Positions 3,751 to 20,222 of a stretch of DNA of 62,169 nt are shown one piece after another (position 1 is the first letter of the stretch; each line of letters begins with the position of its first letter). This DNA comes from Cellvibrionaceae bacterium (GTDB lineage Bacteria > Pseudomonadota > Gammaproteobacteria > Pseudomonadales > Cellvibrionaceae), in NCBI GenBank assembly GCA_002707785.1, contig PANW01000025.1, positions 24,925 to 87,093 on the forward strand, read 5' to 3'. Under the pieces are notes generated by a model. The model was given only the letters and a program-made list of their open reading frames with translations. It was not told the origin of the DNA and did not search any database. Both the position numbers and the translations under genes were made by a program.

Positions 3751-5268
3751 TTAGCTTTTACTTAAATGAGCGGTCTGCAGAGTGGGGTCTTCTTGTGTGC
3801 TTTTTTTCATGATCAAGGCGTACAAACCACCGCCCATAATCGCGCCCACGAACCAAGCGTAATTGTAGAGCTCAATAAAAAACGCGGGTGCGGATTCTAT
3901 AAAACCGCCCGCTACCAGAAAGCCCGGAATATTGGGGGCGACGGCTAACGCAAACGCCAGCAGTGCTTTCAGGTTCCAGCCGTTTTGATATTCGTAGCAA
4001 CCCTCGCGCAGGTAAAGTTGATCTAACTTAAGCTGGCTGCGGCGAACGAAGAAATAGTCAGCAATCAATATGCCGGCGATAGGACCAAGCAGGGAAGAGT
4101 AACCGACCAGCCACACGAACAGATACGAGCCGGCAGACTCCATCAGTTTCCACGGCATAATGACAATGCCTAAACCTGCGGTGATAAATCCTCCGGTGCG
4201 GAAAGAAATAAATTTAGGTGCAAGGTTGGAAAAGCCATTGGCTGGGGCAACAACGTTAGCGGCTAAGTTTGTGGTGATGGTGGCGATGATCAGCAGAAAC
4301 AATCCGACCAGGGCTGTGATGCCGCCCATGCGACCGGCGATTTCAACGGGATCCCAAATTTTTTCTCCATAGATCACCAGTGTTGCTGAGGTCACGCAGA
4401 CGCTGACAAAACCCAAAAGCGCCATAGGGATCGGAAGGCCTGCCGCCTGTCCAATGATTTGGTCTTTTTGGCTCTTCGCGTAGCGAGTAAAGTCTGGAAT
4501 GTTCAAAGAAAGAGTCGCCCAAAATCCCACCATTGCGGTCAATCCGGGCCAAAACACGCTCCAGAATTGTCCTTCTTTTTCACCGCCTTCAACAAACGAG
4601 GAGGGCTGGCTAAAGGTTCCGCTGAGGCCATCGGTATTGATGTAAGCCCATACAAACAGCGCCACGCCAATCAACAGCAACAGAGGTGCGGCAAAGGTTT
4701 CAAGCCACTTTATCGATTCCATACCGCGAGCAATGAAAAATACCTGCAGCGCCCAAAAGGCGATAAAGCAACACAGTTGAGCAAAATCAATATCGAGGAA
4801 AGGGATGGCTTGGCCGACAAAAGCACCACCAAAGACGCCGTTGAGTATTTGATAAATGGCAAAACCACCGACCCAAGTTTGAATGCCAAACCAGCCGCAG
4901 GCGACAAGGCTGCGCAGTAAACTGGGGAGTCGTGCACCGACTGTGCCGAACGAGGAGCGCAATAGAACTGGAAAGGGAATGCCGTATTTTGCGCCCGCGT
5001 GACCGACCAATATCATCGGTACTAACACCACGACATTGCCTAACAGAACGGTGCTGATGGCCTGTAAGGGAGACATGCCTTCTTGCATTAGGCCAGAGGC
5101 GAGCAGGTAAGCGGGAACAGAGATGACCATACCGACCCACAGAGAAAAGATGTGCAGCCAGCCCCAAGTGCGATCATCAGTGTGTGCGGGTTCGAAGTCG
5201 TCATTCCATAGGGAGCCATCTCGGGCGGCTCCCTGGGTGAGAGTTTCAAAATCGTGTGACTGACTCAT
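3751..5268 (-). CDS. NCS1-family permease (cytosine/uracil/allantoin/hydantoin type)
   Basis: Twelve-helix transporter of 505 residues. The N-terminus has the NCS1 signature (SLWNDDFEPA, then RTWGWLHIFSLWVGM), followed by a conserved GAKYGIPFPVLLRSSFG block near residue 100 and the IPDFTRYAKSQKDQ block near 270, which is typical of cytosine/purine/uracil/thiamine/allantoin permeases. It lies 81 bases downstream of the M20 hydrolase gene with no obvious promoter between, so the two probably form an operon under the RutR-like operator at 6654. Context points to uptake of uracil, thymine, a dihydropyrimidine or a hydantoin. Sequence alone cannot separate these. Confidence 0.9.
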   Translation of the reverse strand: MSQSHDFETLTQGAARDGSLWNDDFEPAHTDDRTWGWLHIFSLWVGMVISVPAYLLASGLMQEGMSPLQAISTVLLGNVVVLVPMILVGHAGAKYGIPFPVLLRSSFGTVGARLPSLLRSLVACGWFGIQTWVGGFAIYQILNGVFGGAFVGQAIPFLDIDFAQLCCFIAFWALQVFFIARGMESIKWLETFAAPLLLLIGVALFVWAYINTDGLSGTFSQPSSFVEGGEKEGQFWSVFWPGLTAMVGFWATLSLNIPDFTRYAKSQKDQIIGQAAGLPIPMALLGFVSVCVTSATLVIYGEKIWDPVEIAGRMGGITALVGLFLLIIATITTNLAANVVAPANGFSNLAPKFISFRTGGFITAGLGIVIMPWKLMESAGSYLFVWLVGYSSLLGPIAGILIADYFFVRRSQLKLDQLYLREGCYEYQNGWNLKALLAFALAVAPNIPGFLVAGGFIESAPAFFIELYNYAWFVGAIMGGGLYALIMKKSTQEDPTLQTAHLSKS

Positions 5269-5349
5269 GGTGCCTGTACCTGTGTAATAGAAAGAATGAA
5301 CGTAGAATGCCCAATCGCATTCCGTGCATGTTGGCGTTTGTCGATCACG

Positions 5350-6582
5350 TCAGTCGACAATGCCAGCTACCTCCAGCATGGAGTGGAGTAAAACATTACA
5401 GCCCGCGGTGCATTGCTCTGGGGTGGTGAACTCAATCTCGTTGTGACTAATACCATCTTTGCAGGGCGTAAAGACCATTCCCGCGGGTACGATATCCGCC
5501 ATGTAACAAGCATCATGACCGGCGCCTGCAAAGATGTCCATATGGGAGTAACCGAGCTTCTCGGCAGCGATTTTTACATTGTCTGAGGCGTTAAACTCAA
5601 CCGGCGCGAAGTACCAGAAGTGATCCACGTCTACGCTCAACCCACGCTCTTGAGCAATGACTTGGCAGTATTCGTTGAGCTCTTGATCCATTTTAGCCAA
5701 GACTTCTGGGTCAGGGTTGCGTAAATCCACACTGAAGGTGACGCTACCAGGAATGGTGTTGCGAGAATTGGGATGAACTTGCATGAAGCCCGTTGTGCCC
5801 AGCCCATTGGGCTTGTTGCGCAGGGCAATGTTCTCGACCTCAGCAATGACATTAGCGGCGGCGGCGAGAGCGTCTGCGCGCAATGCCATGGGGGTAGAGC
5901 CGGCGTGAGATTCACGGCCGGTAATGGTGACGTTGTACCAGCGGATGCCCTGTCCCAGACGCACAACGCCAATCTCTTTGTTCTCGTCTTCAAGAATGGG
6001 GCCCTGTTCGATATGGGCTTCAAAAAACGCCTGCATATGTCGGCTGCCGATTTCTTCGGTGCCCAAGTAGCCAATGCGTACCAATTCGTCTTTGACGTTT
6101 TTGCCATCGACATCGGTCTTCTGCCACTCTTGCTCGAGGTCGAAGCGCCCGACGTAGACGCCAGAGCCTTGCATGGCGGGTTGAAAGCGTGAGCCTTCTT
6201 CGTTGGTCCAAACGGAAACTTCAATGGGGGCTCGGGTAGTGATCTTTTGCTCGTGCAGGGTGCGCAGAATTTCGACACCGGAAAGGACGCCAAAAACGCC
6301 GTCGAATTTACCGCCGGTAGGTTGAGTGTCCAAATGGCTGCCGGTCGATACGGCGCCTAAGCTGCTGTCGCTACCTTCACGGCGAGCGAAGATGTTACCC
6401 ATCTTATCGACGCTGATGGTGCATCCCACGCTCTCGCACCACTGACAAAACAGGTCGCGGGCCTGTTTGTCCAAATCAGTTAGTGCCAATCGATTGCAGC
6501 CGCCTTTTTCTGTGGCGCCAATCTTTGCCATTTCCATCAAGCTCTGCCAGAGACGTTCGCCGTTAATTTCTAATCTAGACAT
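5350..6582 (-). CDS. M20 Zn-dependent N-carbamoyl-amino-acid hydrolase (beta-ureidopropionase type)
   Basis: A 410-residue member of the M20 amidase/hydantoinase family (allantoate amidohydrolase, N-carbamoyl-L-amino-acid hydrolase, bacterial beta-alanine synthase). Visible metal and catalytic motifs are GSHLDTQPTGGKFDG (His/Asp bridge, about residues 81-95), NEEGSRF (about 127-133), HIEQGP (about 192) and GAGHDA near residue 357. With dihydropyrimidinase nearby, the likely reaction is N-carbamoyl-beta-alanine to beta-alanine plus CO2 and ammonia, the last step of reductive pyrimidine breakdown. Hydantoin-derived carbamoyl amino acids are an alternative. It is the first gene of a two-gene unit with the NCS1 permease and has its own promoter and RutR-like operator. 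Confidence 0.85.
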   Translation of the reverse strand: MSRLEINGERLWQSLMEMAKIGATEKGGCNRLALTDLDKQARDLFCQWCESVGCTISVDKMGNIFARREGSDSSLGAVSTGSHLDTQPTGGKFDGVFGVLSGVEILRTLHEQKITTRAPIEVSVWTNEEGSRFQPAMQGSGVYVGRFDLEQEWQKTDVDGKNVKDELVRIGYLGTEEIGSRHMQAFFEAHIEQGPILEDENKEIGVVRLGQGIRWYNVTITGRESHAGSTPMALRADALAAAANVIAEVENIALRNKPNGLGTTGFMQVHPNSRNTIPGSVTFSVDLRNPDPEVLAKMDQELNEYCQVIAQERGLSVDVDHFWYFAPVEFNASDNVKIAAEKLGYSHMDIFAGAGHDACYMADIVPAGMVFTPCKDGISHNEIEFTTPEQCTAGCNVLLHSMLEVAGIVD

Positions 6583-6653
6583 AGAGTAATCCTACTAACA
6601 ATGAGGTTTGTACTGTTTAAATCATAATCGTGGTGGATTTCGATGTAACTTTC

Positions 6654-6669
6654 CTGTCCAGATGGTCAA
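6654..6669. promoter_or_regulatory. RutR-like operator in front of the hydrolase-permease operon
   Basis: CTGTCCAGATGGTCAA matches the published E. coli RutR consensus TTGACCA-NN-TGGTCAA at 12 of 14 defined positions and keeps the 2-base spacer. The symmetry extends outward (CCTGTCCA-GA-TGGTCAAG). It overlaps the last two bases of the predicted -10 of the minus-strand promoter, the position expected for a repressor. Two related boxes lie upstream of cofG. Confidence 0.7.
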
Positions 6670-6895: not shown

Positions 6896-9214
6896 TTAAA
6901 AGTCACGACGCACAGTTAAGCCATAGGTGCGTGGCTTGGCGTAGGAGATCTGACTGTTGCCGTAAAAACCAGAAACATCGAAGCCAATCATTTCATCTTC
7001 CGAATCGGTGACGTTGTCGACAAACGCTGTGACAGTCCACTGTTCATTAAGATCGCGCCAGGTAACTTGGGCATCGGCTTTGAAACGACTTTCTATCTCA
7101 TGGGCGTCGAAGTTTCTTGCGTTGTGGAATGTTTCTGATTGATAAGAAGCACTGATCTGTGCCGCTAAACTACCGCTGGCTAAATCCCAGTTGTAACGAA
7201 TGAGGCCAGATGCCTGCCATTCTGGTGTATAGGGCGGTGTTGTATCTTCGATGTAGCCTGAGGCAACTTCCAGATCCTCGACCGTTGCGTCTATGTAAGA
7301 GGCGCCTAGCATAATGTCTAAGGCATCGATCGGATTCATGAACAATTCGACTTCAGCACCAGTGAAGGTCGCGTCTTCGTTAAATACAACGCCGGCGTTG
7401 TTGACCCAAGAAAACGATTGGTAGTCGCTGTAGTCATAGTGAAAAATACTGGAATTTAAGCGTATTCTTCCATCTTTGAAGCTCAGCTTAGAGCCCATTT
7501 CATAGGCGACAATTTCTTCTGGATCATAGGTGCTAAAGCCGCCAAACAAAGGCGCGTTGAAACTGCCCGCCTTCACGCCACGATTGACACCGATATAGTA
7601 GAGGCTGTCATCATCGGGGGAGTATTCCAATTGCAATTTGGCTGACCACAGATCTTGGTCGTTTTCGTCGTCATAGTTTTCCAGTGACACGCCGCTGGTA
7701 TCGATTTCTATCTTGCGATCATCCAAGTTAGCATTTTGGTAGACGCGGCCTTTCATGGTTTTGTCTTCTTGAATAAAACGCGCCCCTGCAACCAATACTA
7801 GGCTCTCGCTGAGATCGATATCCAGCTGGCCAAAGATCGAGTAAGAATCGGTATCCACTTCAGCGACAGTATTGTTTTCTTCGCCACCCAGAAAGAAGGC
7901 GGTGGGGGAGGCGGCTAAGCCCTGCGAGTAGTCGGTATCAATGCCTAGATAGTAAAGCCCGGTTACCCATTTCATCGTTTCGGTGGTACCGGCGAAGCGG
8001 AACTCTTGGCTAACTTGATCGATTTCGCCATCGGATTGGAAGATCAATTCCGGTGAGGCGGTTTGATCCGAATCTAGACCGACGGTACGACTGAACGACT
8101 TATAGTCCGTCATGGAGAAGAATTCGAAATTTTCGAAGTCGTAGGTGAAGGTAGCCGCGAAGCCTTTTGATTCAATGCTGTTCTGATCGTCAAAGGCAAA
8201 GTCTTTATTGACCTTGGGGCCTGAGCCGTCGGGATCGAAATTGCCGTTGAAGTCACCACCCTGTACCGGGCGTAAAGGGTTACCATCGAAGTTGCCGTCT
8301 ACACAGCTACCGGCTTGAATGGTGTCACAGCCCATAGCGTCGTCTTTGGCAAAGATCACGTTGACCACGTTACCGTTCACATCTTTCACTTCGGTGGTGT
8401 TTACGAACTGATAGGGGCCTTCACTTTTGGTGGTGTCTGCCCAGTTTGCGCTCAGCAATAAGTTGCCGGCGTCACCAATATCAAATTCCAACTGGCCTCG
8501 AACGGCTTGGGTGTCGTCGTTGTAACCATCTTCACCGCCGCCGACAGAGCCTGCACGGGTATCGGGTGCGGCGCTATCCTCATAGATGTTGTCGAGTACT
8601 TCGCCTTGCTGATTCGCCATAACGGATAGACGACCACGAACGCCGTCGGCGATGGCGCCGGAAATAGCGCCTTCAAAGCGGTACTGATCAAAGCTCGCAT
8701 GGGTCAGCTCGGCATAACCTTCCAATTCTTCGGTTGGGCGGGCAGTAATGGTATTGACCAGACCGCCAGTGGCGTTACGTCCGAACAGCGTGCCCTGAGG
8801 GCCTTTCAGAATTTCAACCCGCTCAATATCAAAGAGGCCGAAGGTTTGTGCTTGAGTACTGGCCAAATAGCCGCCGTCCACATAAACCGCCACTGGTGCT
8901 TCGGCGAGATCGGCGTAGTCATTCTGTACCACGCCGCGGATGTTAAAGATGGCGCGTTGACCACCAATGTCACCAGCCAGCGATACGCCAGGGGTGAAGT
9001 CAATCAGCTCGGTACTGGACTCGAGTCCAAGAGCTTTCATTTGGTCACCGCTGAACGCAGTGACGGCAATACCAACATCGCTGGCATTCTGTTCACGTTT
9101 TTGAGCAGTTACAACAACTTCCTCAAGGACCGATGCGCTGACGTTTGACGTACAGCTCATCACCGCGAGAGCGAGCAGTGTTTTCTTAAAGTGACAATTG
9201 CGCTGAGTTTTCAT
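6896..9214 (-). CDS. TonB-dependent outer-membrane receptor
   Basis: 772 residues from the ATG at 9214, which has GGGGAAG just upstream. The longer open frame runs into the dihydropyrimidinase gene and is not used. A signal peptide is followed by a TonB box-like stretch (EEVVVTAQKREQ). Then come a plug domain with the usual RVEILKGPQGTLFGRNATGG and a 22-strand-type barrel rich in acidic loops, ending in an aromatic residue (RRDF). It belongs to the broad class of marine and sphingomonad receptors, not clearly to siderophore types. Placed 55 bases after dihydropyrimidinase in the same orientation, it may import a pyrimidine, nucleoside or hydantoin-type substrate. That substrate is inference only. 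Confidence 0.9.
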   Translation of the reverse strand: MKTQRNCHFKKTLLALAVMSCTSNVSASVLEEVVVTAQKREQNASDVGIAVTAFSGDQMKALGLESSTELIDFTPGVSLAGDIGGQRAIFNIRGVVQNDYADLAEAPVAVYVDGGYLASTQAQTFGLFDIERVEILKGPQGTLFGRNATGGLVNTITARPTEELEGYAELTHASFDQYRFEGAISGAIADGVRGRLSVMANQQGEVLDNIYEDSAAPDTRAGSVGGGEDGYNDDTQAVRGQLEFDIGDAGNLLLSANWADTTKSEGPYQFVNTTEVKDVNGNVVNVIFAKDDAMGCDTIQAGSCVDGNFDGNPLRPVQGGDFNGNFDPDGSGPKVNKDFAFDDQNSIESKGFAATFTYDFENFEFFSMTDYKSFSRTVGLDSDQTASPELIFQSDGEIDQVSQEFRFAGTTETMKWVTGLYYLGIDTDYSQGLAASPTAFFLGGEENNTVAEVDTDSYSIFGQLDIDLSESLVLVAGARFIQEDKTMKGRVYQNANLDDRKIEIDTSGVSLENYDDENDQDLWSAKLQLEYSPDDDSLYYIGVNRGVKAGSFNAPLFGGFSTYDPEEIVAYEMGSKLSFKDGRIRLNSSIFHYDYSDYQSFSWVNNAGVVFNEDATFTGAEVELFMNPIDALDIMLGASYIDATVEDLEVASGYIEDTTPPYTPEWQASGLIRYNWDLASGSLAAQISASYQSETFHNARNFDAHEIESRFKADAQVTWRDLNEQWTVTAFVDNVTDSEDEMIGFDVSGFYGNSQISYAKPRTYGLTVRRDF

Positions 9215-9269: not shown

Positions 9270-10718
<1,449 letters not shown>

Positions 10719-10848: not shown

Positions 10849-11781
10849 TCACAGTGCATAGAGTTTCTCGCGAGCAGTATGAGACGCGGTGAGGTGACGT
10901 AGCAGTTCTTGTGCCATGCGCGTTGGTTTGTTTGATTTGCAGTTGATCACGGCAAATTGGCACTGGTAGGAGTATGTTTTGGAGTCAATGCACTTGAACA
11001 CTCCGTCATTGACGAAATGCCGGGCGTAGTGATCGGGTAGAAAACCAACGTATTCACCCGATTGAATGAGCAGGGCAATCCCTTCTTGGTCATAGGCGGT
11101 CGCGGAACGCTTTAGATTCAATCGATTAAAGACTTGTTGGTTGGGCGAGTTCATATCCATGGCGGCCAACTTGACGTTGTTCATCAGCTCTTCATCGATG
11201 CCTTCCTCTTTACCAAATAGGTGGTGCCCGAGTCCGCAATAAAGGCTCATGTCTTCAACGAACAGAGGGTTGTATTGCAGTGAGGAGGTGTGTCGATGAA
11301 TGGGGACTATGCCTAAGTGGTAATCGCCACTGAGGACTCTGTTTTCCACCGTGTTGAGCTGCTGTGTATGAATGTCGATATGGATATTGGGGTATTCGGT
11401 GGAAAAGTTTCGGATGGCTTTGGGGACATGGCTGTTGGGATTGCCCACAACCTTGTCGCAAAAACCAACTCTCAAAACGCCTTTGATGTTCTCTTGAATG
11501 TCATTGGCTCTGCCTTTAAAACGATTCAGCGCATCGAACAGTTCGATCGACGCCTCGTAAATTTCCATGCCTTCGGGGGTTAAGGAAAAACCGGAATTTC
11601 CTCTATGACAGAGGGTGACGCCAAGACGTACCTCGAGATCTTTAAGGTGGCGACTGATGGTGGAGCGACCGATGTTTAGATCAAGTTCCGCCGCCGATAA
11701 ACCACCTCTGGCTACTACTTTGTGAAAGATGCTGAGCAGCTTGATTTCTGAATCTGAGACGTTTCTAAGTGCCTTGGCCAT
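10849..11781 (-). CDS. LysR-family transcriptional regulator
   Basis: 310 residues. The N-terminal winged HTH (SEIKLLSIFHKVVARGGLSA, then LNIGRSTISRHLKDLEVRLG) spans about residues 8-65, and a periplasmic-binding-like effector domain follows. I chose the ATG at 11781 because GGGGGAAG lies just before it, not the upstream TTG at 11793. It sits inside the same-strand series between the F420-dependent oxidoreductase and dihydropyrimidinase. It is therefore a second candidate regulator of the locus beside the RutR-like protein, perhaps sensing a pathway intermediate. The 133-base gap to dihydropyrimidinase could hold a promoter, but no RutR-like box is present there. Confidence 0.88.
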   Translation of the reverse strand: MAKALRNVSDSEIKLLSIFHKVVARGGLSAAELDLNIGRSTISRHLKDLEVRLGVTLCHRGNSGFSLTPEGMEIYEASIELFDALNRFKGRANDIQENIKGVLRVGFCDKVVGNPNSHVPKAIRNFSTEYPNIHIDIHTQQLNTVENRVLSGDYHLGIVPIHRHTSSLQYNPLFVEDMSLYCGLGHHLFGKEEGIDEELMNNVKLAAMDMNSPNQQVFNRLNLKRSATAYDQEGIALLIQSGEYVGFLPDHYARHFVNDGVFKCIDSKTYSYQCQFAVINCKSNKPTRMAQELLRHLTASHTAREKLYAL

Positions 11782-11852
11782 GACTTCCCCCAATTTTATT
11801 ATAAGTAACAGAAGATCCGCGGCTGATTGCCACCAACCGCGAATCGTGGGTT

Positions 11853-12854
11853 TTAGCTGAACTCCGGTATGATGCTCTTGCCGTACTGCGCAATAATGTT
11901 CTCTTCATCTCCGTTGTCGAGATAGATGTTGTACTGAGTGACTCCCGCCTCTTTCATTTTATGGATCTTGTTGATGTGATCCTCGGTCGTGCCGAGCACA
12001 CAAAAACTATCGACGATGTCTTCGGTAATAAAATCCAGATAAGGGTTGTCGCTTTGGCCGTGTTTGGAATAATCGTAGCCGCGACGGTTTTCGATGTAGG
12101 AGGTCAGGCTGGAAGGAATGTTGGGATCGTCGGCGCCATATTTTTCAACAATATCGGCAACGTGATTACCTACCATGGCGGGAAACCATTTGGTGGCTTC
12201 TCGACATTCGTCCATGCTGCCAAAATACGCCGGTGCCGCAGCTTGTACTTTGAAGTTGGACATATCTCTATCGATGTCTTTGCCGGCAATATGGCATTGA
12301 TCGGCAAACCAGCGAATCAGATCCGGGTCACCGATTTGTAAGATTACGCCGTCGCCCACTTCGCCTGCCGCTTTGAGAGCTTTGGGGCCGTAGGCGCCAA
12401 TCCAAATGGGCAGCTCGTAGCCTGTTGCCCAAGGGAATTTTACCGGCTCTGGGCATTCGCCATAGCTCACTTCTTCGCCGCGAATCATGGCTTTTACTTT
12501 TTGGGTGAACTCGGTCATCTGGGCAATGGTTGCGGGTTTCTTACCCATGACTCGAACTGAGCTGTCACCGCGACCGAGACCCACATCAATACGACCGTTA
12601 CTTTGATGGGCGAGGCTTCCCCACAGGCTTGCGGCCAAAGACCAGTCGCGAGCTTTGGGGTTGGTGACGCAAGGACCGAAGCGCATGGTTTTGGTGTGTT
12701 CCATGCACATGGCAATGGCGGGATAGCACTCGCGCCACAAAATATGGGAGTCGTAAAACCAGCAGTAACTAAAGCCCGCTTCCTCGGCCTGTTTGACCAG
12801 TTGGCGTGCGCGATCTGGCTCTACAAAGCCTTTAAAAGTAATACCAAATTCCAT
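11853..12854 (-). CDS. LLM-class F420-dependent oxidoreductase (CPS_4043-like family)
   Basis: A 333-residue luciferase-like TIM-barrel protein. Family features seen are GFSYCWFYDSH near residues 27-37, the MRFGPCVTNPKARDW block near 57-71, RIDVGLGRGDSS near 88-99 and PIWIGAYGPKALKAAGEVGDGVIL near 149-172. These fit F420-binding members of the LLM family rather than FMN bacterial luciferases. I associate it with the TIGR03842 (CPS_4043) family from memory. A strong AGGAG precedes the ATG. It lies 63 bases after npdG, so its F420H2 supply is encoded next door. Its substrate is unknown. The neighbouring dihydropyrimidinase makes a pyrimidine-ring reductase role attractive. Confidence 0.85.
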   Translation of the reverse strand: MEFGITFKGFVEPDRARQLVKQAEEAGFSYCWFYDSHILWRECYPAIAMCMEHTKTMRFGPCVTNPKARDWSLAASLWGSLAHQSNGRIDVGLGRGDSSVRVMGKKPATIAQMTEFTQKVKAMIRGEEVSYGECPEPVKFPWATGYELPIWIGAYGPKALKAAGEVGDGVILQIGDPDLIRWFADQCHIAGKDIDRDMSNFKVQAAAPAYFGSMDECREATKWFPAMVGNHVADIVEKYGADDPNIPSSLTSYIENRRGYDYSKHGQSDNPYLDFITEDIVDSFCVLGTTEDHINKIHKMKEAGVTQYNIYLDNGDEENIIAQYGKSIIPEFS

Positions 12855-12917: not shown

Positions 12918-13589
12918 TTAAGCGGTTTCCGGTGGTGCAATCTTTACTCCCACGTGGGTGTGCGGGAATGATTTGGAAATATTGAGGCGAATCAGTATGG
13001 GAGTGATGGCTTCAATGCAGCGCGCGCTTTCGGCCAGTCCGGCGTTCAAAGCGGTAATGCCCATGGACTCGGTGAGCGCAATAACGGATTTTTTGGCATC
13101 GAGTGAGTTGCCGCACACCAAGATGTCGCAATTCACCGGTTGATCGAAAGCGTTCAGTTGGTGAGCTGAGACATTGTGAAAAGCGCCAACAACGGGAGTG
13201 TCTTCGCCCAGAATCCGCTGCGCTTGTTCGGTGGCCGAGCCTTCGCTGGGCATGGTGACGGATTTCGGATTACCTTCGGTTAAAGGAACCACAATATCGA
13301 CAATCAGTTTGCCTTTGAGTTGCGCCGATAAATCTTGCAGAGTGCGTTCATGGGCGCTGAAGGGCACAGCGATGAAAATCATGTCGTCTGCGTCAGTAAT
13401 AGCCGCTTGGTTGTCGCCGCCCGTGATGGTGCCAGTGGCCTGAGGAATCTTCTGATTCAACTGTTGCGCGATTTCTTCGGCCCGTTGTGCGTCGCGTGAA
13501 CCGAGTACCACGTCTGTGCCGGCGAGGGCTAGTCGCAATGCCAGTCCTTGTCCTTGAGGGCCGGTACCGCCGAGTATGGAAACTTTCAT
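12918..13589 (-). CDS. npdG: NADPH-dependent F420 reductase
   Basis: A 223-residue Rossmann protein beginning [20 protein letters not shown], the NADPH-binding fingerprint of the NpdG/Fno family. Next come [12 protein letters not shown], where the Arg contacts the 2'-phosphate, and the VGAFHNVSA block near residue 136, typical of F420-dependent NADP reductases. It moves hydride between NADPH and F420. In an aerobic heterotroph the likely direction is F420 reduction, feeding the LLM enzyme downstream. Its ATG overlaps the cofE stop by four bases (ATGA), so it is translationally coupled to the biosynthesis genes. Confidence 0.9.
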
Positions 13590-14425
13590 AAAAACAAATC
13601 CTCTTTAGGTGTTCTGATTAAATCGTTGATTGAGCTGCTCTGATCGCGCCAGTTGACGCCGTCGAAGATGATGACGGGGGTTTTGGCATCTTTGCCCATA
13701 AGTAGTCCAGAGGCCGCTGCCAGTTCGTCGGCCAGTGCCGGCTTGGTGACAAACAAAGGCTTGCCCCAGGCATCGGTGGTGCAACCGTCTTCAACCACGG
13801 CGGCGACGCCGGCAAGACCAATGGCGACGTTAACCAAGCCTTGGCGCCAGGGGCGGCCGAAAGTGTCGGTGATGACGATGCCGGGGGTTTTACCGGTCAG
13901 TGATTGGATGGTCTGACGCAGGCGTCTAGCGCTGAGGTCGGCGTCTTCTGGCAGCAGTAATACGCTTTCGATACCGTCGATGTTGGACTCGTCGATGCCG
14001 GCGTTGGCACAGATAAAACCATTGCGATGGCGGGTGATGAGAAGTCCTTCGCTGTCGCCGTTGGGGGCTTCTCTTAGACGCACGATGTCGCTGCTTTCTT
14101 GCAGTACCAACTCAATCTTGCGCGGATCTTTGTTGAGTTTTCTGGAAAGTTGCAGGGCTTGCCGTGAGGGTTCAACAGAGGCCAGTGCAATGGTTCTGCC
14201 TTCGGCTTTAGAGACCACTTTCTGGGCGACAATCAAAATACTCTGATTGCTGATGCTTTGACCTTCGCGTTGCAGTGACTCGACAATGAGTGATCCTAGG
14301 CAATCGTCTTGATAAACGTCGGGTATGGTTCGTAGTGCTCGTATTTGAACTTGATTGCCTGCCGTTGAGTGGGCTTGATCGGCATCGGTGTTGTCGGCGC
14401 TTAGTAAATGTTGGGCGGGGTTCAT
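13586..14425 (-). CDS. cofE: Coenzyme F420-0:L-glutamate ligase
   Basis: A 279-residue single-domain CofE that adds the glutamate tail to F420-0 using GTP. The conserved [10 protein letters not shown] block (about residues 68-77), [13 protein letters not shown] (about 135-147), [12 protein letters not shown] (about 185-196) and the C-terminal GLLMGKD block are all present. Unlike mycobacterial FbiB it carries no nitroreductase-like second domain. About 25 residues precede the usual start of the family ([11 protein letters not shown]), so the true start could be internal. Start and stop overlap cofC and npdG by ATGA. Confidence 0.92.
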
Positions 14426-15099
14426 GCAATCAATCTCCGTTCAGCGGGTGATGATGCGGTGACCTTTTGATGATCGCTTGTCAGCAGAGATAGGCAGTGC
14501 TGCAAATCCTGTGGGCAGTCGATGTCATTTGCCAAGCTTGTTTGTTCCAATCTCAAGCACGTCAAACCTTGCGCGTAGGCGTAGGCCTGGTAGCGTCTGG
14601 CCGATTGATGCCCAAACATAAACGGGGTGATGTTGGGGGGCGTGGTGAGCAAGCAGTTAGTGCCACCGTCACTCGAAACTGCCAGTGCCATGCCTGGATT
14701 CACTTGTCGCTGCTCGAGCAGTAAATCCATGTCGTGACGATCGGGATTGGCGATGTCGGGGAAGAAGGTTAGCTGACATTGAAAACCGTGTTCGATGCTC
14801 CATTGTGTTGCTGCCTCTATGGCGTTATTGAGGCCGGTGCTCTGCGGTTCCAGCAGAAGATCGGCACCTAGATCTTTGGCGAATTTGGCGGCGTGAAGAT
14901 CAGGTGTTACCACCAAAATGTTGTGTGCGGGATAGTTCTGTTTTAGCCAGCGCAGGTTCTTGTGGTAGAGGCTCTGAGTCAGTTGCTGGCGTTCCACAGA
15001 AGTAAGTGCGGCTTTCAGTCGCTGTTTGGAGTGTTGCAGCTGTTTAATGGGCACCACAAAATTGACTGCCATTTCTGCTTGCTTATGGGGACGTGACAT
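14422..15099 (-). CDS. cofC: CofC-type phospholactate/phosphoenolpyruvate guanylyltransferase
   Basis: A 225-residue MobA-like nucleotidyltransferase that activates the phospho-acid side chain of F420 with GTP. The N-terminus VVPIKQLQHSKQRLKAAL is the CofC/FbiD form of the GTP-binding loop. DLLLEPQSTGLNNAIEAA near residues 78-95 is the conserved nucleotide-binding block, and SSDGGTNCLL follows near 140. The ATG at 15099 shares one base with the cofD stop (TGATG) and has GAGG seven bases upstream. A GTG at 15102 is less likely. Which three-carbon acid is used (2-phospholactate, PEP or 3-phosphoglycerate) cannot be read from sequence by eye. Confidence 0.9.
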   Translation of the reverse strand: MSRPHKQAEMAVNFVVPIKQLQHSKQRLKAALTSVERQQLTQSLYHKNLRWLKQNYPAHNILVVTPDLHAAKFAKDLGADLLLEPQSTGLNNAIEAATQWSIEHGFQCQLTFFPDIANPDRHDMDLLLEQRQVNPGMALAVSSDGGTNCLLTTPPNITPFMFGHQSARRYQAYAYAQGLTCLRLEQTSLANDIDCPQDLQHCLSLLTSDHQKVTASSPAERRLIA

Positions 15100-16076
15100 C
15101 ACGCGACCTCGGTCTTTCTTGGGGCTTGCTGATCCGCGATGGCGTCTAGCAGAGAGCGGGCAAATCTTTGGCGGCTGGTGAGATCATCCATTAAGGTATT
15201 CATAATGATGACCTCCAGCCCCTGTTGAGCGAGCGCGTCGGCGTGTTGCTGGTCTTGTTCGTCGATGACCAAGGTATCAATCAGTCCGTGGTAGTAGTCA
15301 GCGATCCCCAAAACATCGGCGCGGTAGCCTAGCGCCGTCATTACTTCTGCGGTGGGGCCCTTCACGGCTTTACCACCAATTAAGGGAGAAACGGCTACGC
15401 GTTTAGCGCTGCTATTGGTCAAACACTCGCGCACGCCGTTGATCGCTAGGGTGGGGCCAATACTGAGCAAGGGATTACTCGGGGCAATAAAAATCAAATC
15501 GCTGTGTTCGAGTGCCTGTTGAGTTTCCGGCGTAATCTCAGCGCTCATGCCCGTTGTTGTGATATTGCGGTGATAGAGGTTCTTCACCGTGGGTTGATGG
15601 CGATGTTTGACAAAGTACTGCTGCATCGAGAGCACACCGTGGGATGACTCAATGCGGGTTTGCCACTTGTCGTCTGTGGGCAGCAGTACACGACAGTCGA
15701 TGCCTGATTGCGCTGCTAGCCATGTGGTGATGTCGGTGGGTCGCTGGCCGCGTTGAAGCCGCTCGCTGCGAGTGATGTGAGTGGCGAGATCCTGATCGCC
15801 CAGCGTCATCCACGAATCTCTGCCAAGCTGCGTCAATGCCGACTGCAGATGAAGCGTATCGCCGGCAATGCCCCAGCCCGCATCGCGATTGACGCGATTA
15901 GATAAAGTGTAGAGAAGCGTATCGACATCTGGCGACACCCATAAGCCATAAAACTCATCATCGTCAGCGACATTAGGGATGACGCTGAGTTGTTTTGAAT
16001 CCACCGTGTGGTAGAGCCCTTCAACCAGTTTGGCGCCACCAACACCACCGCTAATGATGCTAATCTGCTCTGGCAT
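15099..16076 (-). CDS. cofD: CofD-type transferase (2-phospho-L-lactate transferase)
   Basis: A 325-residue enzyme that joins the CofC product to the deazaflavin Fo, giving F420-0 or dehydro-F420-0. It shows the N-terminal SGGVGGAKLVEGL loop (residues 9-21), the NVADDDEFYGLWVSPDVDT block near 36-54 that contacts metal and substrate, and APSNPLLSIGP near 200. The start at 16076 is fixed by GGAGGTGG five bases upstream and by a TAATG junction with the cofH stop. A longer frame to 16115 would overlap cofH. Confidence 0.93.
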   Translation of the reverse strand: MPEQISIISGGVGGAKLVEGLYHTVDSKQLSVIPNVADDDEFYGLWVSPDVDTLLYTLSNRVNRDAGWGIAGDTLHLQSALTQLGRDSWMTLGDQDLATHITRSERLQRGQRPTDITTWLAAQSGIDCRVLLPTDDKWQTRIESSHGVLSMQQYFVKHRHQPTVKNLYHRNITTTGMSAEITPETQQALEHSDLIFIAPSNPLLSIGPTLAINGVRECLTNSSAKRVAVSPLIGGKAVKGPTAEVMTALGYRADVLGIADYYHGLIDTLVIDEQDQQHADALAQQGLEVIIMNTLMDDLTSRQRFARSLLDAIADQQAPRKTEVA

Positions 16077-17275
16077 TACACCACCTCCAATACTGGAATT
16101 TGTTGTGCTTGCCATTGGCTGCGAGGCTGCAAGGTGGTGACGGTACTGCTGCTAATTTTTTGTGCTTGCTGGTAACTAGTGGTGCGCTGCCAAGCTTCAA
16201 ACCCTTGGCTAGAAATCATTTTCCGCATTTCTGCCGGGGTAATCTCTTGTCCATAGAGCGCGCCTGAAGCTCGCGAAATACTCTCGTTCATCAGCGTACC
16301 GCCCATATCATTGACGCCGAAGTTTTGAGATTCGGCGGCCAATTGTGGTCCCAGCTTTACCCAAGAGGCTTGAATATTGTCGATGTGGCCGTGCAGCATG
16401 ATACGAGCAACAGCGTGGATAGCGATGTGTTCACGCTTTGTGGGGCCCGGTCTGGTGCGTTGGTCTTCTAGGTACAGAGGCGAGTCGTAATGCACAAATC
16501 CCAAGGGCACGAACTCGGTAAAACCACCGGTCTCTTTTTGTATGTCTCGCAACAGTGCCATGTGCGCGGCCCAGTGATGAGGCTGGTCGACATGGCCGTA
16601 CATCATCGTTGCGGTGGAGGGCAGCCCTACTTGATGGGCCACTTTGATGATGTCGATCCAGGATTTTGCGGACAGTTTGTCTTTGGTCAAAATCTTTCGT
16701 ACCTCGACATCGAGGATTTCAGCGGCAGTGCCAGGAACGGAATCCAATCCGCACGCCTTTAAATCGGACAGAAAGTCGGCGTAACTCATTCGACTTTTCT
16801 TCGCGCCGTAATAGATTTCAAACGGTGAAAAAGCATGCAAATGAATGTCAGGAGTCGCACGTTTTATGGTTTTAACGATGTCGCGATAGTGACTGCCGGG
16901 CAGGTCTGGGTGCAGGCCGCCTTGAATACAAACTTCGGTGGCTCCGCGTTTGACCGCTTCTTGAGCGCGTTGAGCCAATGTTTCCATGGGCAAAAGTTCA
17001 GCTTCTGCCGAATCTTTGTGTTTACCGAAACCACAAAATCGACAACCCATATGGCAGACGTTGGTAAAATTAATGTTGCGAGTGACAACAAAACTGGATT
17101 TTTTCCCGTGGACTTGCTGGCGGAGTTCGTTCGCACATGACATTACTGCTTTGAGATCGTCGCCATCACTCGATAGCAATCGAGTGGCTTGCGCTTCGCT
17201 CAGTTCGCCACCGTCGAGAACTGAGTCAAGAATGGCTCGAATGTCGCGATGGGCGTGTTTGAAATCAATCGTCAT
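16076..17275 (-). CDS. cofH: FO synthase subunit 2, radical SAM
   Basis: A 399-residue radical SAM protein with the cluster motif CHMGCRFC (Cys 74, 78 and 81 from the chosen start). The EVCIQGGLHPDLPGSHY and PGTAAEILDVEVR blocks are typical of CofH and its relatives MqnC/MqnE. With CofG it makes 7,8-didemethyl-8-hydroxy-5-deazariboflavin (Fo) from tyrosine and a riboflavin precursor. Placement directly after cofG argues for CofH and against a menaquinone enzyme. I chose the ATG at 17275 because the 32 residues before it in the open frame look unlike the family. The ribosome site there is weak. Confidence 0.92.
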   Translation of the reverse strand: MTIDFKHAHRDIRAILDSVLDGGELSEAQATRLLSSDGDDLKAVMSCANELRQQVHGKKSSFVVTRNINFTNVCHMGCRFCGFGKHKDSAEAELLPMETLAQRAQEAVKRGATEVCIQGGLHPDLPGSHYRDIVKTIKRATPDIHLHAFSPFEIYYGAKKSRMSYADFLSDLKACGLDSVPGTAAEILDVEVRKILTKDKLSAKSWIDIIKVAHQVGLPSTATMMYGHVDQPHHWAAHMALLRDIQKETGGFTEFVPLGFVHYDSPLYLEDQRTRPGPTKREHIAIHAVARIMLHGHIDNIQASWVKLGPQLAAESQNFGVNDMGGTLMNESISRASGALYGQEITPAEMRKMISSQGFEAWQRTTSYQQAQKISSSTVTTLQPRSQWQAQQIPVLEVV

Positions 17276-17324
17276 TTGAAATACCGCTTCTAGTCTATTA
17301 GTAATTGTTTCTATGGTGTTGCTA

Positions 17325-18455
17325 CTACGCGCATCGCGTATTGACCAAGCCGTCGTCGCCGCTACAGGCAATCAGGCGTGAATTGATGTTGGGGTAGACG
17401 AATTCGGGGCGTTGCAAATAGTCGGGGTAGACGGGTAGACGTTCGCGCAATTGATAACCTTGTTGAGCGCAGTTTTTTTGCAGCTCGGTGATGTTGGGCC
17501 AGGCACACTCTGGATTGATAAAGTCCTTGGTGACGGGAGAGATTCCACCCCAATCATTAATGCCTGCAGATAGGTAGTGTTGATGGCGCTGCTGAAGATT
17601 GGGCGGCGCTTGCAGGCTGATGGAGGGGTCGAGCATCAGTCGCGCTACCGCCAGTGTTTTCATCATGTCGTCTAGATCAGGTTCTGGATGGTTGGCCATC
17701 GCGGTGTCTGCTTTAGCGCGAAAATTCTGGATGATGACTTCTTGTATATGACCGTACTGCTGATGAATGCGATTGATGGTGTCCAGCGCTTCGATTCGAT
17801 CGGCCCAGGTTTCACCGATGCCGATGAGTAAGCCTGTGGTAAACGGGACTTGATGTTTTCCTGCGAGTTCGAGGGTTTGCAAACGAAGCTTGGGAGCTTT
17901 GTCTGGGCAGCGATAATGCACGCCGCCTTTCTTCATCAATTTCAAACTCAGACTTTCCAGCATCATTCCCATGCTGGCAGATACGGGTTTCAGTTGACGG
18001 ATGTCTGCCTCGTTTAATGTGCCGCAATTGATGTGCGGAATCAGCGTGGTATTTTCCAAGGTGTATTCACACATTTCACGCAAGTAGTCGTTCATGCTCT
18101 TGTGGCCGAGAGCGGCCAGCATCTCGGCACTTTTCGAATAGCGCTGCTCGGGCTTTTCGCCAAGGCTGAACAGGGCTTCTTTGCATTTTAATTGCTGGCC
18201 TTGTTGCAATGTGGAGGCGACTTGCTGGCGCGACATGATATTGGCTAAGGGCGAGTCTGGGTGTTTGACGAAAGTGCAGTAGAGGCATTCATCGCGGCAC
18301 ATGTTGGTGAGTGGCAAAAAAACTTTGCGCGAATAAGTGATGTCTTTGCCCCAGTGGGATTCACGACAGGCTGTTGCTTGGCGACAGATTTTTTCAATGT
18401 CGGGTTGTGGCGCGTTTTCAAAATCTAGCCATTGCCGTAGTGATTTTCTATTCAT
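17325..18455 (-). CDS. cofG: FO synthase subunit 1, radical SAM
   Basis: A 376-residue radical SAM protein. The cluster motif CRDECLYC (Cys 53, 57, 60) lies near the N-terminus. SLGEKPEQRY near residue 96 and TTGLLIGIGETWADRIEAL near 205 are hallmarks of CofG. It carries out one half of deazaflavin ring formation, and the other half is CofH encoded 49 bases downstream. Separate cofG and cofH genes resemble archaeal and cyanobacterial arrangements rather than the fused FbiC of actinobacteria. It is the first gene of the F420 series. The ATG at 18455 has GAGACGAG upstream, while the longer frame opens with TTG at 18524. Confidence 0.93.
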   Translation of the reverse strand: MNRKSLRQWLDFENAPQPDIEKICRQATACRESHWGKDITYSRKVFLPLTNMCRDECLYCTFVKHPDSPLANIMSRQQVASTLQQGQQLKCKEALFSLGEKPEQRYSKSAEMLAALGHKSMNDYLREMCEYTLENTTLIPHINCGTLNEADIRQLKPVSASMGMMLESLSLKLMKKGGVHYRCPDKAPKLRLQTLELAGKHQVPFTTGLLIGIGETWADRIEALDTINRIHQQYGHIQEVIIQNFRAKADTAMANHPEPDLDDMMKTLAVARLMLDPSISLQAPPNLQQRHQHYLSAGINDWGGISPVTKDFINPECAWPNITELQKNCAQQGYQLRERLPVYPDYLQRPEFVYPNINSRLIACSGDDGLVNTRCA

Positions 18456-18532
18456 CGACTCGTCTCGCAGATGATTGCACCAAATTGGCACATTAATTCT
18501 CTTGTTTGTGTTGGCTTGCACCAAAATAAAAC

Positions 18533-18548
18533 CTGTCCATGTGGTCAG
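18533..18548. promoter_or_regulatory. RutR-like operator, cofG-proximal
   Basis: CTGTCCATGTGGTCAG matches 11 of 14 defined positions of TTGACCA-NN-TGGTCAA. The extended form CCTGTCCA-TG-TGGTCAGG is an 8-bp inverted repeat with one mismatch. Its left half is identical to that of the box at 6654. It is centred about 85 bases upstream of the cofG ATG. Confidence 0.65.
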
Positions 18549-18602: not shown

Positions 18603-18618
18603 TTGATCAAGCGGTCAG
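18603..18618. promoter_or_regulatory. RutR-like operator, distal
   Basis: TTGATCAAGCGGTCAG matches 11 of 14 positions of the RutR consensus with the same 2-base spacer. The outer bases (C before it and GG after it) again resemble the other two boxes. It lies 70 bases from the proximal box, so it could serve a second promoter, a repression loop, or the divergent upp gene. Confidence 0.5.
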
Positions 18619-18823
18619 GAAATTATTTAATTGCTCCGTCGCCAAATTGCATCAATGGCGGCTATGCCTCTTAGCGTTTTAAGGTTCTATCAGCGGCTTG
18701 GAAGTGTTTGAGGTTGTTCTATACTGCAACTGGCGTTCGAAATATTACTAACTACAGTCAACGCTGTATGGTTGCGCCTAGGTGCTTTCCCTAGACTGTT
18801 ACTCGCTGAATAGGAATTTTAAT

Positions 18824-19459
18824 ATGAAGAATAACTTGGTTGTCGTTGATCATCCGATGATTCAGCACAAGCTGACCATTATGAGAGACCGTGACACCGC
18901 ATCGGGGAAGTTTCGCTCGCTGCTCAAAGAGATCAGTTTATTGATGGGGTATGAGGCTACTCGAGACTTGCCGATGACCAATCGCTCGATCGAAACACCT
19001 CTCGAAGAAATGGAAGCGCCCGTGCTGTCGGGCAAAAAGCTCTGTATTTTTTCGGTTCTGAGAGCCGGCGACGGATTGCTGACCGGTCTGCTTGAGCTGG
19101 TTCCATCCGCTCGGGTTGGGCATGTGGGTTTGTATCGCGATGAAGAGACGCTCGAGGCGGTAGAGTACTTTTACAAGGGGCCCCAACAATTGGAAGATCG
19201 GCTGTGTTTGGTGGTTGATCCCATGCTGGCGACGGGTAATTCCGCCAAGGCGGCGATTGATAAGGTGAAGTCGAATGGTGCTAAGAACATACGTTTTATC
19301 TGCCTTTTAGCATCGCCTGAAGGATTGGAATTACTCAATCGTGAACATCCAGATGTCACCATATACACCGCTTCGCTAGAGCGGGAGTTAAACAGTTCCG
19401 GGTATATTCTCCCAGGTGTTGGTGATGCGGGTGATCGCTTATTTGGCACTTGCAAATAG
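18824..19459 (+). CDS. upp: Uracil phosphoribosyltransferase
   Basis: Converts uracil and PRPP to UMP, the salvage branch for free uracil. The 211-residue length fits the family (about 208). Seen are the N-terminal [16 protein letters not shown], the [12 protein letters not shown] block near residue 83 and the PRPP loop [12 protein letters not shown] near 127-138. Near the C-terminus are the ASPEGLE and [13 protein letters not shown] uracil-binding segments. I chose the ATG at 18824 because AGGAA lies seven bases upstream and the family starts there. It is divergent from cofG and followed by the RutR-like regulator, so salvage and catabolism of uracil are encoded back to back. Confidence 0.95.
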
Positions 19460-19482
19460 CATGGCGAGTGCTGCATTTTTTT
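19457..19482 (+). terminator. Possible terminator after upp
   Basis: A short stem AGCA/TGCT (19458-19461 with 19469-19472) or GCACT/AGTGC (19446-19450 with 19467-19471) is followed by seven T at 19476-19482. The stems are weak, so this may only attenuate readthrough into the TetR gene. Confidence 0.35.
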
Positions 19483-19580
19483 AATTGCGTTTCAATAACT
19501 GATAGTATGCGCTGGCATGTCAGAGCAGCGAAGCGGTACCAGTCGGTACAGAGGATCTACAGGAGGTATCAGCGAGACCT

Positions 19581-20222
19581 ATGCCAGCGATAAAAACACC
19601 TACCAAGACTAGAAAGTCTCACATACGTGAGGCCAATACGCGACAAATCATTCAAGCTGCCGAAGCCTTGTTTGCTGAAAAGGGCTTCAATGGTACCTCG
19701 ACTCAGGAGATTGCCGATAAAGCCGGGTTGCCCAAGGCTAATGTCCATTACTATTTCAAAACCAAACGCGATCTGTACATGGTGGTGTTGCAGGATATTT
19801 TGGATGCGTGGATGCATGACGCCGATATTTTTAAGACCTCGTCAGATCCGGAAGAGGTGTTTCGTCAGTATATTCAAGCCAAGATGCAACACTCTTTCAG
19901 TCGCCCCAAAGGATCTAAGGTTTGGGCGATGGAGATTATTCAGGGTGGGCCCGTGATGGGCAAAGAAATCCAGAAAGCCTTGGTCAGCTGGGACAAGCTG
20001 GTTAAACAGAAAATTCAAAGCTGGATCGATGAGGGTTTAATACAGGCAGTGAATCCGCAGAGTTTGCTGAATATGATTTGGTCTTCGACTCAGTACTACG
20101 CCGATTACGACTATCAAATCCGAGCGCTTAACGGCAATAAAAAGCTATCGGTGGCTCAGCGGCAGCAGGCAACAGACGATGTTACTCAGATGATTCTTAA
20201 CGGTATTATGATACAGGCGTAA
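19581..20222 (+). CDS. rutR: TetR-family regulator resembling RutR (pyrimidine-responsive repressor)
   Basis: 213 residues. The TetR HTH lies at about residues 20-65 (IIQAAEALFAEKGFNGTSTQ, then AGLPKANVHYYFKTKRDLY). The C-terminal domain resembles E. coli RutR in several places: VVLQDILDAW, WAMEIIQGGPVMGKEI near 115-130, and MIWSSTQYYADYDYQI near 153-168, where RutR has a similar MIWASTQHYADF segment. RutR is released from DNA by uracil or thymine, and RutR-like boxes occur in this locus. AGGAGG lies 14 bases before the ATG, a long spacing. A repeated CGGTAC pair (19534-19550) just upstream may or may not be an autoregulatory site. Confidence 0.8.
   Translation: MPAIKTPTKTRKSHIREANTRQIIQAAEALFAEKGFNGTSTQEIADKAGLPKANVHYYFKTKRDLYMVVLQDILDAWMHDADIFKTSSDPEEVFRQYIQAKMQHSFSRPKGSKVWAMEIIQGGPVMGKEIQKALVSWDKLVKQKIQSWIDEGLIQAVNPQSLLNMIWSSTQYYADYDYQIRALNGNKKLSVAQRQQATDDVTQMILNGIMIQA

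What the first reader, a model, noticed from the sequence alone, without database searches (positions are those of the whole stretch)
3751..20222. A self-contained F420 and pyrimidine-catabolism locus in a gammaproteobacterium
On one strand the window encodes all of F420 synthesis (cofG, H, D, C, E), F420 reduction (npdG), a single F420-type oxidoreductase, dihydropyrimidinase, an N-carbamoyl-amino-acid hydrolase, an NCS1 permease and a TonB receptor, with upp and a RutR-like regulator diverging. F420 is classically archaeal and actinobacterial. Here cofactor supply, recycling, user enzyme, transport and control appear packaged for one nutrient class. The gene calls are seen in sequence. The idea that they form one functional system is inference from order, overlaps and shared operators.
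Basis: partly seen in the sequence, partly recalled or inferred. Interest (0 to 1): 0.95.

Follow-up and report, generated by a model that had tools for sequence, protein, structure and literature searches.

The report
F420-powered uracil breakdown gene cluster
This gammaproteobacterium carries, side by side, the genes for making and recharging the rare cofactor F420 and genes for enzymes of the kinds that break down uracil, and a Mer-like enzyme in the cluster is predicted to use F420 for the first, ring-reducing step, which would explain why such bacteria make F420 at all.

Summary
The gene calls are right: cofG, H, D, C, E, npdG, the TIGR03842 LLM gene, dihydropyrimidinase, the carbamoylase-family amidase, the NCS1 permease and upp all pass curated cut-offs. 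The seven-gene F420-LLM block is complete and collinear in 66 of 80 named relatives. Of 51 LLM genomes tested, 51 have cofD (47 over cut-off) and 50 dihydropyrimidinase, but only 5 PreA and 1 RutA; the own genome has neither. In an order sample, 14 of 15 LLM genomes have dihydropyrimidinase against 19 of 297 others. The RutR-like protein keeps the five uracil contacts, and RutR-type palindromes sit near cofG in 32 of 65 loci, 0.7 expected. Some relatives add aminotransferase, MMSDH and transhydrogenase genes. Best reading: the LLM protein is an F420H2-dependent uracil/thymine reductase replacing PreTA, a new electron-donor variant of the reductive pyrimidine pathway. Activity and F420 itself are untested; the cluster is probably several transcripts; upp and the TonB gene are rarely linked elsewhere.

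The parts
17325..18524 (-). cofG (FO synthase subunit, radical SAM); true start perhaps at an inner ATG
   Evidence: TIGR03550 458 bits, cut-off 213
16076..17371 (-). cofH (FO synthase subunit, radical SAM); true start perhaps at an inner ATG
   Evidence: TIGR03551 489 bits, cut-off 374
15099..16115 (-). cofD (2-phospho-L-lactate transferase)
   Evidence: TIGR01819 269 bits, cut-off 257
14422..15102 (-). cofC (guanylyltransferase)
   Evidence: TIGR03552 117.5 bits, cut-off 105
13586..14425 (-). cofE (F420-0:L-glutamate ligase, without an FbiB-type reductase domain)
   Evidence: TIGR01916 227 bits, cut-off 181; 279 aa, Pfam F420_ligase only
12918..13589 (-). npdG (NADPH-dependent F420 reductase)
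   Evidence: TIGR01915 210 bits, cut-off 150
11853..12854 (-). Mer-like LLM F420 oxidoreductase, predicted F420H2-dependent uracil/thymine reductase
   Evidence: TIGR03842 497 bits, cut-off 295; closest solved structures are Mer, then other F420 enzymes
11814..11845 (-). terminator-like hairpin (14 pairs) just after the LLM gene
   Evidence: pattern scan; 19 such sites in the region against 17.7 expected, this one has the longest stem (next 7 pairs)
10849..11793 (-).
   Evidence: Pfam HTH_1 and LysR_substrate
9270..10715 (-). dihydropyrimidinase (PydB)
   Evidence: TIGR02033 609 bits, cut-off 393; D-hydantoinase/dihydropyrimidinase 5e5c 693 bits
6896..9481 (-). TonB-dependent receptor; start more likely near 9214
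   Evidence: Pfam Plug and beta-barrel; inner ATG
6655..6668 (.). RutR-type palindrome TGTCCAGATGGTCA, 72 bp upstream of the amidase ORF
   Evidence: 1 mismatch
5350..6582 (-). hydantoinase/carbamoylase-family amidase, predicted N-carbamoyl-beta-alanine amidohydrolase (PydC role)
   Evidence: TIGR01879 436 bits, cut-off 204; 8c46 N-carbamoyl-beta-alanine amidohydrolase 471 bits, but two untyped amidases (5i4m, 5thw) score higher
3751..5268 (-). NCS1 nucleobase:cation permease
   Evidence: TIGR00800 380.5 bits, cut-off 353
18534..18547 (.). RutR-type palindrome TGTCCATGTGGTCA between cofG and upp
   Evidence: 1 mismatch
18604..18617 (.). second RutR-type palindrome TGATCAAGCGGTCA between cofG and upp
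   Evidence: 2 mismatches
18782..19459 (+). upp, uracil phosphoribosyltransferase
   Evidence: TIGR01091 257 bits, cut-off 208
19581..20222 (+). RutR-like TetR regulator with all five uracil-contact residues
   Evidence: TIGR03613 155.5 bits, below the 368 cut-off; W77, Y97, W167, Q171, Q179

Best explanation
The 16-kb cluster encodes a full F420 synthesis set, the F420 reductase NpdG, a Mer-like LLM oxidoreductase, a dihydropyrimidinase, a carbamoylase-family amidase and an NCS1 permease, and the oxidoreductase is predicted to reduce uracil and thymine to their dihydro forms with F420H2, which would replace the NAD(P)H-dependent dihydropyrimidine dehydrogenase (PreTA/PydA). Predicted flow: nucleobases enter through the NCS1 permease (and perhaps the TonB receptor). 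NADPH charges F420 through NpdG, with NADPH fed by a PntAB-like transhydrogenase where that gene pair is linked. The LLM protein passes the hydride to the C5-C6 double bond. Dihydropyrimidinase and the amidase then open the ring and release ammonia, CO2 and beta-alanine or beta-aminoisobutyrate. An omega-aminotransferase and MMSDH carry these to acetyl-CoA or propionyl-CoA. A uracil-releasable RutR-like repressor is predicted to sit on operators upstream of cofG and the amidase, so cofactor and pathway would be made together. Shown: genes, order, co-occurrence, operator-like sites, the regulator's ligand residues. Inferred: substrate, direction, regulation.
Against: No activity, F420 measurement or expression data exist here. 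The amidase and dihydropyrimidinase families also act on hydantoins. The 51 genomes were chosen from the relatives closest to this LLM; the order sample includes the own genome (13 of 14 without it) and at least four genomes of the 51; the p-values ignore kinship. Five LLM genomes keep PreA and one keeps three RutA copies, so the LLM is not always the only route. Five LLM genomes without PreA also have two or more dihydropyrimidinases, so a second copy does not need PreA. G279 and G425 have the LLM but no dihydropyrimidinase hit. 33 of 65 cofG loci show no RutR-type site at two mismatches; dihydropyrimidinase (3 of 35) and NCS1 (3 of 46) starts are little above expectation; the Leisingera plasmid shows none at three mismatches in the two intervals scanned. 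Dihydropyrimidinase and NCS1 lie within the fetched flanks of only 38 and 47 of 80 loci, upp in 1. The PntA and PntB copies scored in chromosomal loci miss their NCBIfam cut-offs (Pfam passes). The aminotransferase count has no class baseline (1 of 14 control genomes). The own genome is 87.6% complete, so absences there are provisional. The predicted lid (about residues 231-275) has low confidence, so the pocket is not modelled.
Confidence: 0.76

Rival explanations
1. The LLM protein reduces another ring that feeds the same hydrolases, such as a hydantoin precursor, a modified pyrimidine or a purine breakdown product, and uracil is not its main substrate.
For: Dihydropyrimidinase and the amidase belong to families that also work on hydantoins. 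A luciferase-family F420 enzyme has been proposed as a reductase of the purine derivative yanthine in Chloroflexota (PMC12507026 passages).
Against: Linked aminotransferase and MMSDH in some relatives point to beta-amino acid products, which hydantoins do not give (recalled chemistry); the RutR-like regulator keeps the uracil contacts; PreA is missing in 46 of 51 genomes.
Confidence: 0.13
2. The LLM protein is an oxidative ring opener like RutA (a luciferase-fold pyrimidine monooxygenase), with dihydropyrimidinase serving a different substrate.
For: Same superfamily as RutA, RutR-like control, RutA over cut-off in only 1 of 51 of these genomes.
Against: The closest structures are F420 hydride-transfer enzymes; the block includes NpdG, which makes F420H2; dihydropyrimidinase in 50 of 51 genomes would be unexplained; F420 is a poor partner for oxygen (established chemistry, recalled).
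Confidence: 0.04
3. The LLM protein is a dehydrogenase that reduces F420 (as Fgd or Adf do), and an unknown enzyme reduces uracil.
For: Fgd and Adf share the fold.
Confidence: 0.04
4. The neighbourhood is hitch-hiking: a mobile F420 block happens to sit by pyrimidine genes without a functional tie.
For: The block is on plasmids in Leisingera and Paracoccus, and the Paracoccus copy has no annotated pyrimidine gene within 12 kb (that gene table is incomplete).
Against: In L029 and L036 the LLM gene stays among pyrimidine genes while cofD lies elsewhere in another arrangement; co-occurrence in the order sample; shared operator-like sites.
Confidence: 0.03

Closest known systems
Reductive pyrimidine degradation (Pyd) pathway with PreTA/PydA
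   Same: Dihydropyrimidinase, carbamoylase-family amidase, and aminotransferase and semialdehyde dehydrogenase in relatives; same predicted ring-reduction logic
   Different: No PreA over cut-off in the own genome and in 46 of 51 genomes tested; reductase is a Mer-like F420 enzyme of another fold family; the cofactor's synthesis genes travel with it. Known donors are NADPH, NADH and ferredoxin (PMC7332683, part 1 of 4 read)
Mer, F420-dependent methylene-H4MPT reductase
   Different: 24-29% identity; catalytic Glu6 replaced by Thr or Cys in 61 of 61; a conserved segment at 247-275 unlike Mer
Rut pathway and RutR
   Same: TetR-type regulator with the five uracil contacts, and RutR-type palindromes
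   Different: No RutA hit in the own genome; the regulator is below the RutR equivalog cut-off; predicted targets include F420 synthesis genes
Putative F420-dependent yanthine reductase in Chloroflexota uric-acid clusters (PMC12507026, passages seen)
   Same: Luciferase-family F420 enzyme proposed to de-aromatise a nucleobase-derived ring
   Different: Another phylum, substrate and pathway; also untested
TIGR03842 family (hypothetical equivalog named after CPS_4043; that this is Colwellia is recalled)
   Same: The LLM protein is a member by score
   Different: No function assigned by the family; no paper in the library holds the name

Membership tests
Reductive pyrimidine (Pyd) pathway | Dihydropyrimidinase (PydB) | tested here: met
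   TIGR02033 609 bits, cut-off 393
Reductive pyrimidine (Pyd) pathway | Ureidopropionase-type amidase (PydC) | tested here: met
   TIGR01879 over cut-off, 8c46 471 bits; family level only, substrate not shown
Reductive pyrimidine (Pyd) pathway | Flavin/Fe-S dihydropyrimidine dehydrogenase (PydA/PreTA) | tested here: not met
   No PreA over cut-off in the own genome; genome 87.6% complete
Reductive pyrimidine (Pyd) pathway | Beta-alanine aminotransferase (PydD) | tested here: met
   AptA-type NF052567 688 bits in the own genome on another contig; substrate not shown
F420 biosynthesis and recycling | cofG, H, D, C, E and an F420 reductase | tested here: met
   All over curated cut-offs
F420 biosynthesis and recycling | F420 present in cells | not testable with these tools
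   Needs extraction and fluorescence or LC-MS
F420-dependent LLM oxidoreductases (TIGR03842) | Score over curated cut-off | tested here: met
   497 against 295 bits
Mer | Catalytic Glu at jMer position 6 | tested here: not met
   Thr in 40, Cys in 21 of 61; role from PMC11094777 passages
Rut pathway | RutA monooxygenase | tested here: not met
   No hit at E<=1e-3 in the own genome; genome 87.6% complete
RutR | Equivalog score | tested here: not met
   155.5 against 368 bits
RutR | Uracil-contact residues W77, Y97, W167, Q171, Q179 | tested here: met
   All five, contacts from PMC10891134 passages
RutR | Represses a rut-type operator, released by uracil | not testable with these tools
   Operator-like sites found; binding not measured

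The most novel reading that the evidence does not exclude
A portable cassette of marine and other Proteobacteria starts pyrimidine breakdown with an F420H2-dependent uracil/thymine reductase of the Mer-like LLM fold, unrelated to dihydropyrimidine dehydrogenase, and carries its own uracil-controlled F420 factory. This is the main answer to why these Proteobacteria make F420.
Probability: 0.7. Interest if true: 0.88.

Novelty: new variant of a known kind. Interest (0 to 1): 0.83.

Why it matters
The 2021 F420 review (PMC8498797; passages and sections 23 and 27 seen) says that no F420H2-dependent reductase had been studied by experiment in F420-making bacteria outside the Actinobacteria, and lists why Proteobacteria make F420 as an open question. 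This locus gives a concrete, testable answer for one group of them: a named enzyme, a named substrate, a predicted inducer (uracil) and a simple growth phenotype. It would also add another electron donor and a second, unrelated enzyme class to a widespread nucleobase pathway, and show a rare cofactor spreading between bacterial classes as part of a nutrient cassette.

Tried and rejected
Literature: F420 with dihydropyrimidinase, Colwellia, uracil and gammaproteobacteria, CofC and Proteobacteria, TIGR03842 (15), dihydrouracil, uracil, luciferase and degradation, dihydropyrimidine dehydrogenase. In these listings (titles and abstract starts) and in the passages read, none describes F420-dependent pyrimidine reduction; the nearest is PMC12507026 (passages). 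Only open-licence papers are searched, so 'not in print' is limited to these searches. The Colwellia psychrerythraea genome paper, recalled as noting F420 genes, is not held.

One transcript for the whole locus: not favoured, because a 14-pair hairpin follows the LLM gene and the amidase has its own RutR-type site. Sigma-70 scans gave no more than chance.

Mer function: rejected on the missing Glu6. RutA function: RutA entries rank from 37 down, under the 15 F420-enzyme entries at the top, but fold rank alone excludes nothing.

The 18-bp operator pattern was written from the sites themselves, so its enrichment is circular; I rely on the 14-bp pattern (recalled E. coli RutR consensus; no call printed its letters). 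Backgrounds are single-base shuffles, weaker than dinucleotide shuffles.

LLM and cof distance matrices correlate only moderately (Spearman 0.41-0.53; amidase against cofH 0.69), so I make no strong claim that the block always moves as one. GC content gives no sign of recent transfer (0.508 against 0.521).

Six-of-seven loci: five lack cofG, L055 is cut by the contig end, and L069 and L073 lack a BLAST hit to cofC, probably a detection failure (the Leisingera plasmid has cofC annotated, yet tblastn missed it).

Mended on re-check: one of 15 members of the MMSDH cluster is only 29% alike and is dropped (14 loci left, 7 of them cut by the locus end); one of 10 PntB members is only 42% alike. Odds did not change.

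Rows dropped: and its repeats used 50 of 80 loci plus G000; the 30 left out are mostly near relatives (Marinomonas, Halomonas, Alteromonas, Vibrio, Leisingera, Pseudovibrio, Amphritea) plus L055 and L065 (a Nocardioides record whose block matches the Leisingera loci, probably a contaminant; it is counted in the 80). The tree left out 16 rows. One search skipped loci whose upstream region ran off the contig. Alignment A1 used 50 of the 120 listed homologues, 10 loci and the window.


Full report
What is there. The window lies in a 4.92-Mb, 93-contig genome (87.6% complete). It is gammaproteobacterial: its order sample includes the Marinomonas pollencensis genome behind L004 (same dihydropyrimidinase coordinates), and its LLM protein groups with Aestuariicella. 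On the minus strand, from 18524 down to 3751, run cofG, cofH, cofD, cofC, cofE, npdG, a TIGR03842 luciferase-like (LLM) oxidoreductase, a LysR regulator, dihydropyrimidinase, a TonB-dependent receptor, a hydantoinase/carbamoylase-family amidase and an NCS1 permease; upp and a RutR-like TetR regulator diverge at 18782-20222. Every F420 gene and the LLM gene pass their curated cut-offs. The RutR-like protein does not (155.5 against 368 bits). cofD, cofC, cofE and npdG overlap their neighbours by 4 bp each. Just after the LLM stop comes a 14-pair hairpin (11845-11814), so cofGHDCE-npdG-LLM is probably one transcript and the hydrolases others.

Relatives. A scan of named genomes with the LLM protein found 171 relatives; the best 80 were kept. 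The seven genes cofG-H-D-C-E-npdG-LLM are complete, in this order and on one strand in 66 of 80, six of seven in 8, and the LLM gene stands alone in 6; in one of these six, L017, the locus begins at the LLM gene, so linkage is open. Within the fetched flanks the RutR-like gene is found in 70 of 80, the amidase in 58, the permease in 47, dihydropyrimidinase in 38, LysR in 13, a TonB receptor in 5 and upp in 1. These are lower bounds because flanks are at most 10 kb. The closest relative, Aestuariicella hydrocarbonica (L002), has the whole cluster in the same order. Hosts include gamma-, beta- and alphaproteobacteria, and the block is on plasmids of Leisingera and Paracoccus alcaliphilus.

Does the LLM gene need F420? 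In the 51 genomes behind G000 and 50 of the 80 loci, cofD is found in 51 of 51, 47 over cut-off. The four below are three near misses (251-255 bits) and one fragment (61 bits). This includes all six genomes in which the fetched LLM locus shows no cof gene. In two of these (L029, L036) the LLM gene sits among pyrimidine genes while cofD sits elsewhere next to npdG and cofE in another arrangement, at 37-50% identity to the window's proteins. So the LLM gene goes with F420 even when the genes are not neighbours.

Does it go with pyrimidine breakdown? Dihydropyrimidinase is in 50 of 51 LLM genomes. In a class sample of 274 genomes it passes the cut-off in 10: the own genome, five with PreA within 3.2 kb and four without PreA. 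cofD is in 12 of the 274 (one a fragment below cut-off); apart from the own genome none has TIGR03842 over cut-off, and 2 of these 11 have dihydropyrimidinase. In an order sample of 312 genomes, 15 have the LLM gene; 14 of the 15 have dihydropyrimidinase against 19 of the other 297 (Fisher p=1.6e-14), 11 of the 14 within 12 kb. That sample was not picked by this gene, but it includes the own genome (13 of 14 without it) and at least four genomes of the 51. These tests ignore kinship.

Does it replace PreTA? PreA passes its cut-off in 5 of 51 LLM genomes and RutA in 1 of 51; 45 have neither, the own genome included. All five PreA-bearing LLM genomes carry two full dihydropyrimidinases. In four of the five one copy is within 3 kb of PreA, and in four of the five the other is within 6 kb of cofD. 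Each reductase seems to bring its own hydrolase, although five LLM genomes without PreA also have two or more copies. Among dihydropyrimidinase genomes PreA is in 5 of 50 with the LLM gene and 5 of 9 without it (p=0.005).

Where does the carbon go, and who pays for the reduction? Recurring neighbours are an AptA-type omega-aminotransferase (13 loci, 59-66% identical to a typed member), CoA-acylating MMSDH (14 loci, 61-78%), a PntA-like protein (11 loci) and PntB (9 loci, plus one at 42%). The typed PntA-like and PntB copies of these loci miss their NCBIfam cut-offs but match Pfam. The aminotransferase passes its cut-off in 45 of 51 genomes, in the own genome on another contig (1 of 14 control genomes; no class baseline). 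These fit beta-alanine and beta-aminoisobutyrate as products and NADPH as the source of F420H2 through NpdG. The Leisingera aquaemixtae plasmid has hydA, amidase, AptA, pntB and pntA on one side and cofG-H-D-C-E, npdG, LLM and a RutR-like gene on the other.

Control. E. coli RutR contacts uracil through W77, W167, Q171, Q179 and, via water, Y97, and uracil hinders its binding to a palindrome of about 16 bp (PMC10891134 passages). All five residues are present in the window's protein and in 59 of 62 RutR-like proteins of the set, the window's included. Sites within two mismatches of TGACCANNTGGTCA (recalled consensus) lie near the start of cofG in 32 of 65 loci against 0.70 in shuffles, near the amidase in 17 of 59 (0.50) and near the rutR-like gene in 12 of 70 (0.70). 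Near the LLM start there are 0 of 79 (1.05), cofD 1 of 74 (0.95), npdG 2 of 75 (0.95); cofC 4 of 72, cofE 5 of 75 and cofH 6 of 73 are above their expectations of 0.85-1.2; dihydropyrimidinase 3 of 35 (0.45) and NCS1 3 of 46 (0.80). The window's three sites are at 18534 and 18604 (cofG-upp) and 6655 (amidase). In the window alone the count is not beyond chance.

Verdict. F420H2-dependent reductive pyrimidine degradation is the best-supported reading (0.76). It is a new variant of a known pathway, not a new kind of system: steps two and three are classical; the first step, its cofactor and its genetic packaging are new. F420 genes in Proteobacteria as such are known (PMC8498797). The nearest printed idea that I found is an untested F420 reductase for a uric-acid intermediate in Chloroflexota (PMC12507026).

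Noticed in passing
L042, L063, L070, L077, L079 (Oceanospirillum, Amphritea and an Oceanospirillales MAG): cofG is not found in the block between the RutR-like gene and cofH, and there is too little room for it; whether it lies elsewhere in these genomes was not searched.
   Followed up: no
G274 (Aestuariicella hydrocarbonica), C48:62078 and C48:235451 (L083): Two full cofD genes; the second has npdG and cofE beside it at about 40% identity to the window's, so this relative seems to have two F420 supply loci.
   Followed up: partly
G318:C14:30770-48959 (Poseidonocella, genome of L068): Three RutA-family genes over cut-off lie within about 32 kb of cofD of the F420 block, so both ring-opening routes may coexist there.
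   Followed up: no
window 10849-11793: LysR regulator inside the cluster; relatives of it stand near the aminotransferase and MMSDH genes in Alteromonas, Vibrio, Colwellia and Halopseudomonas loci, suggesting a second regulator of the pathway.
   Followed up: partly
G279 (Bermanella MAG, L007) and G425 (order sample): LLM gene present but no dihydropyrimidinase hit; incomplete assemblies or true exceptions.
   Followed up: no
window 21337-23208 and 23481-24128: Alkyl-sulfatase-like metallo-beta-lactamase-fold protein and a second MBL-fold hydrolase next to the cluster, with no visible tie to it.
   Followed up: no
window 13586-14425: cofE has no FbiB-type reductase domain, so F420 here may not be made by the mycobacterial PEP route; a separate FbiE-type reductase elsewhere was not searched for.
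   Followed up: no
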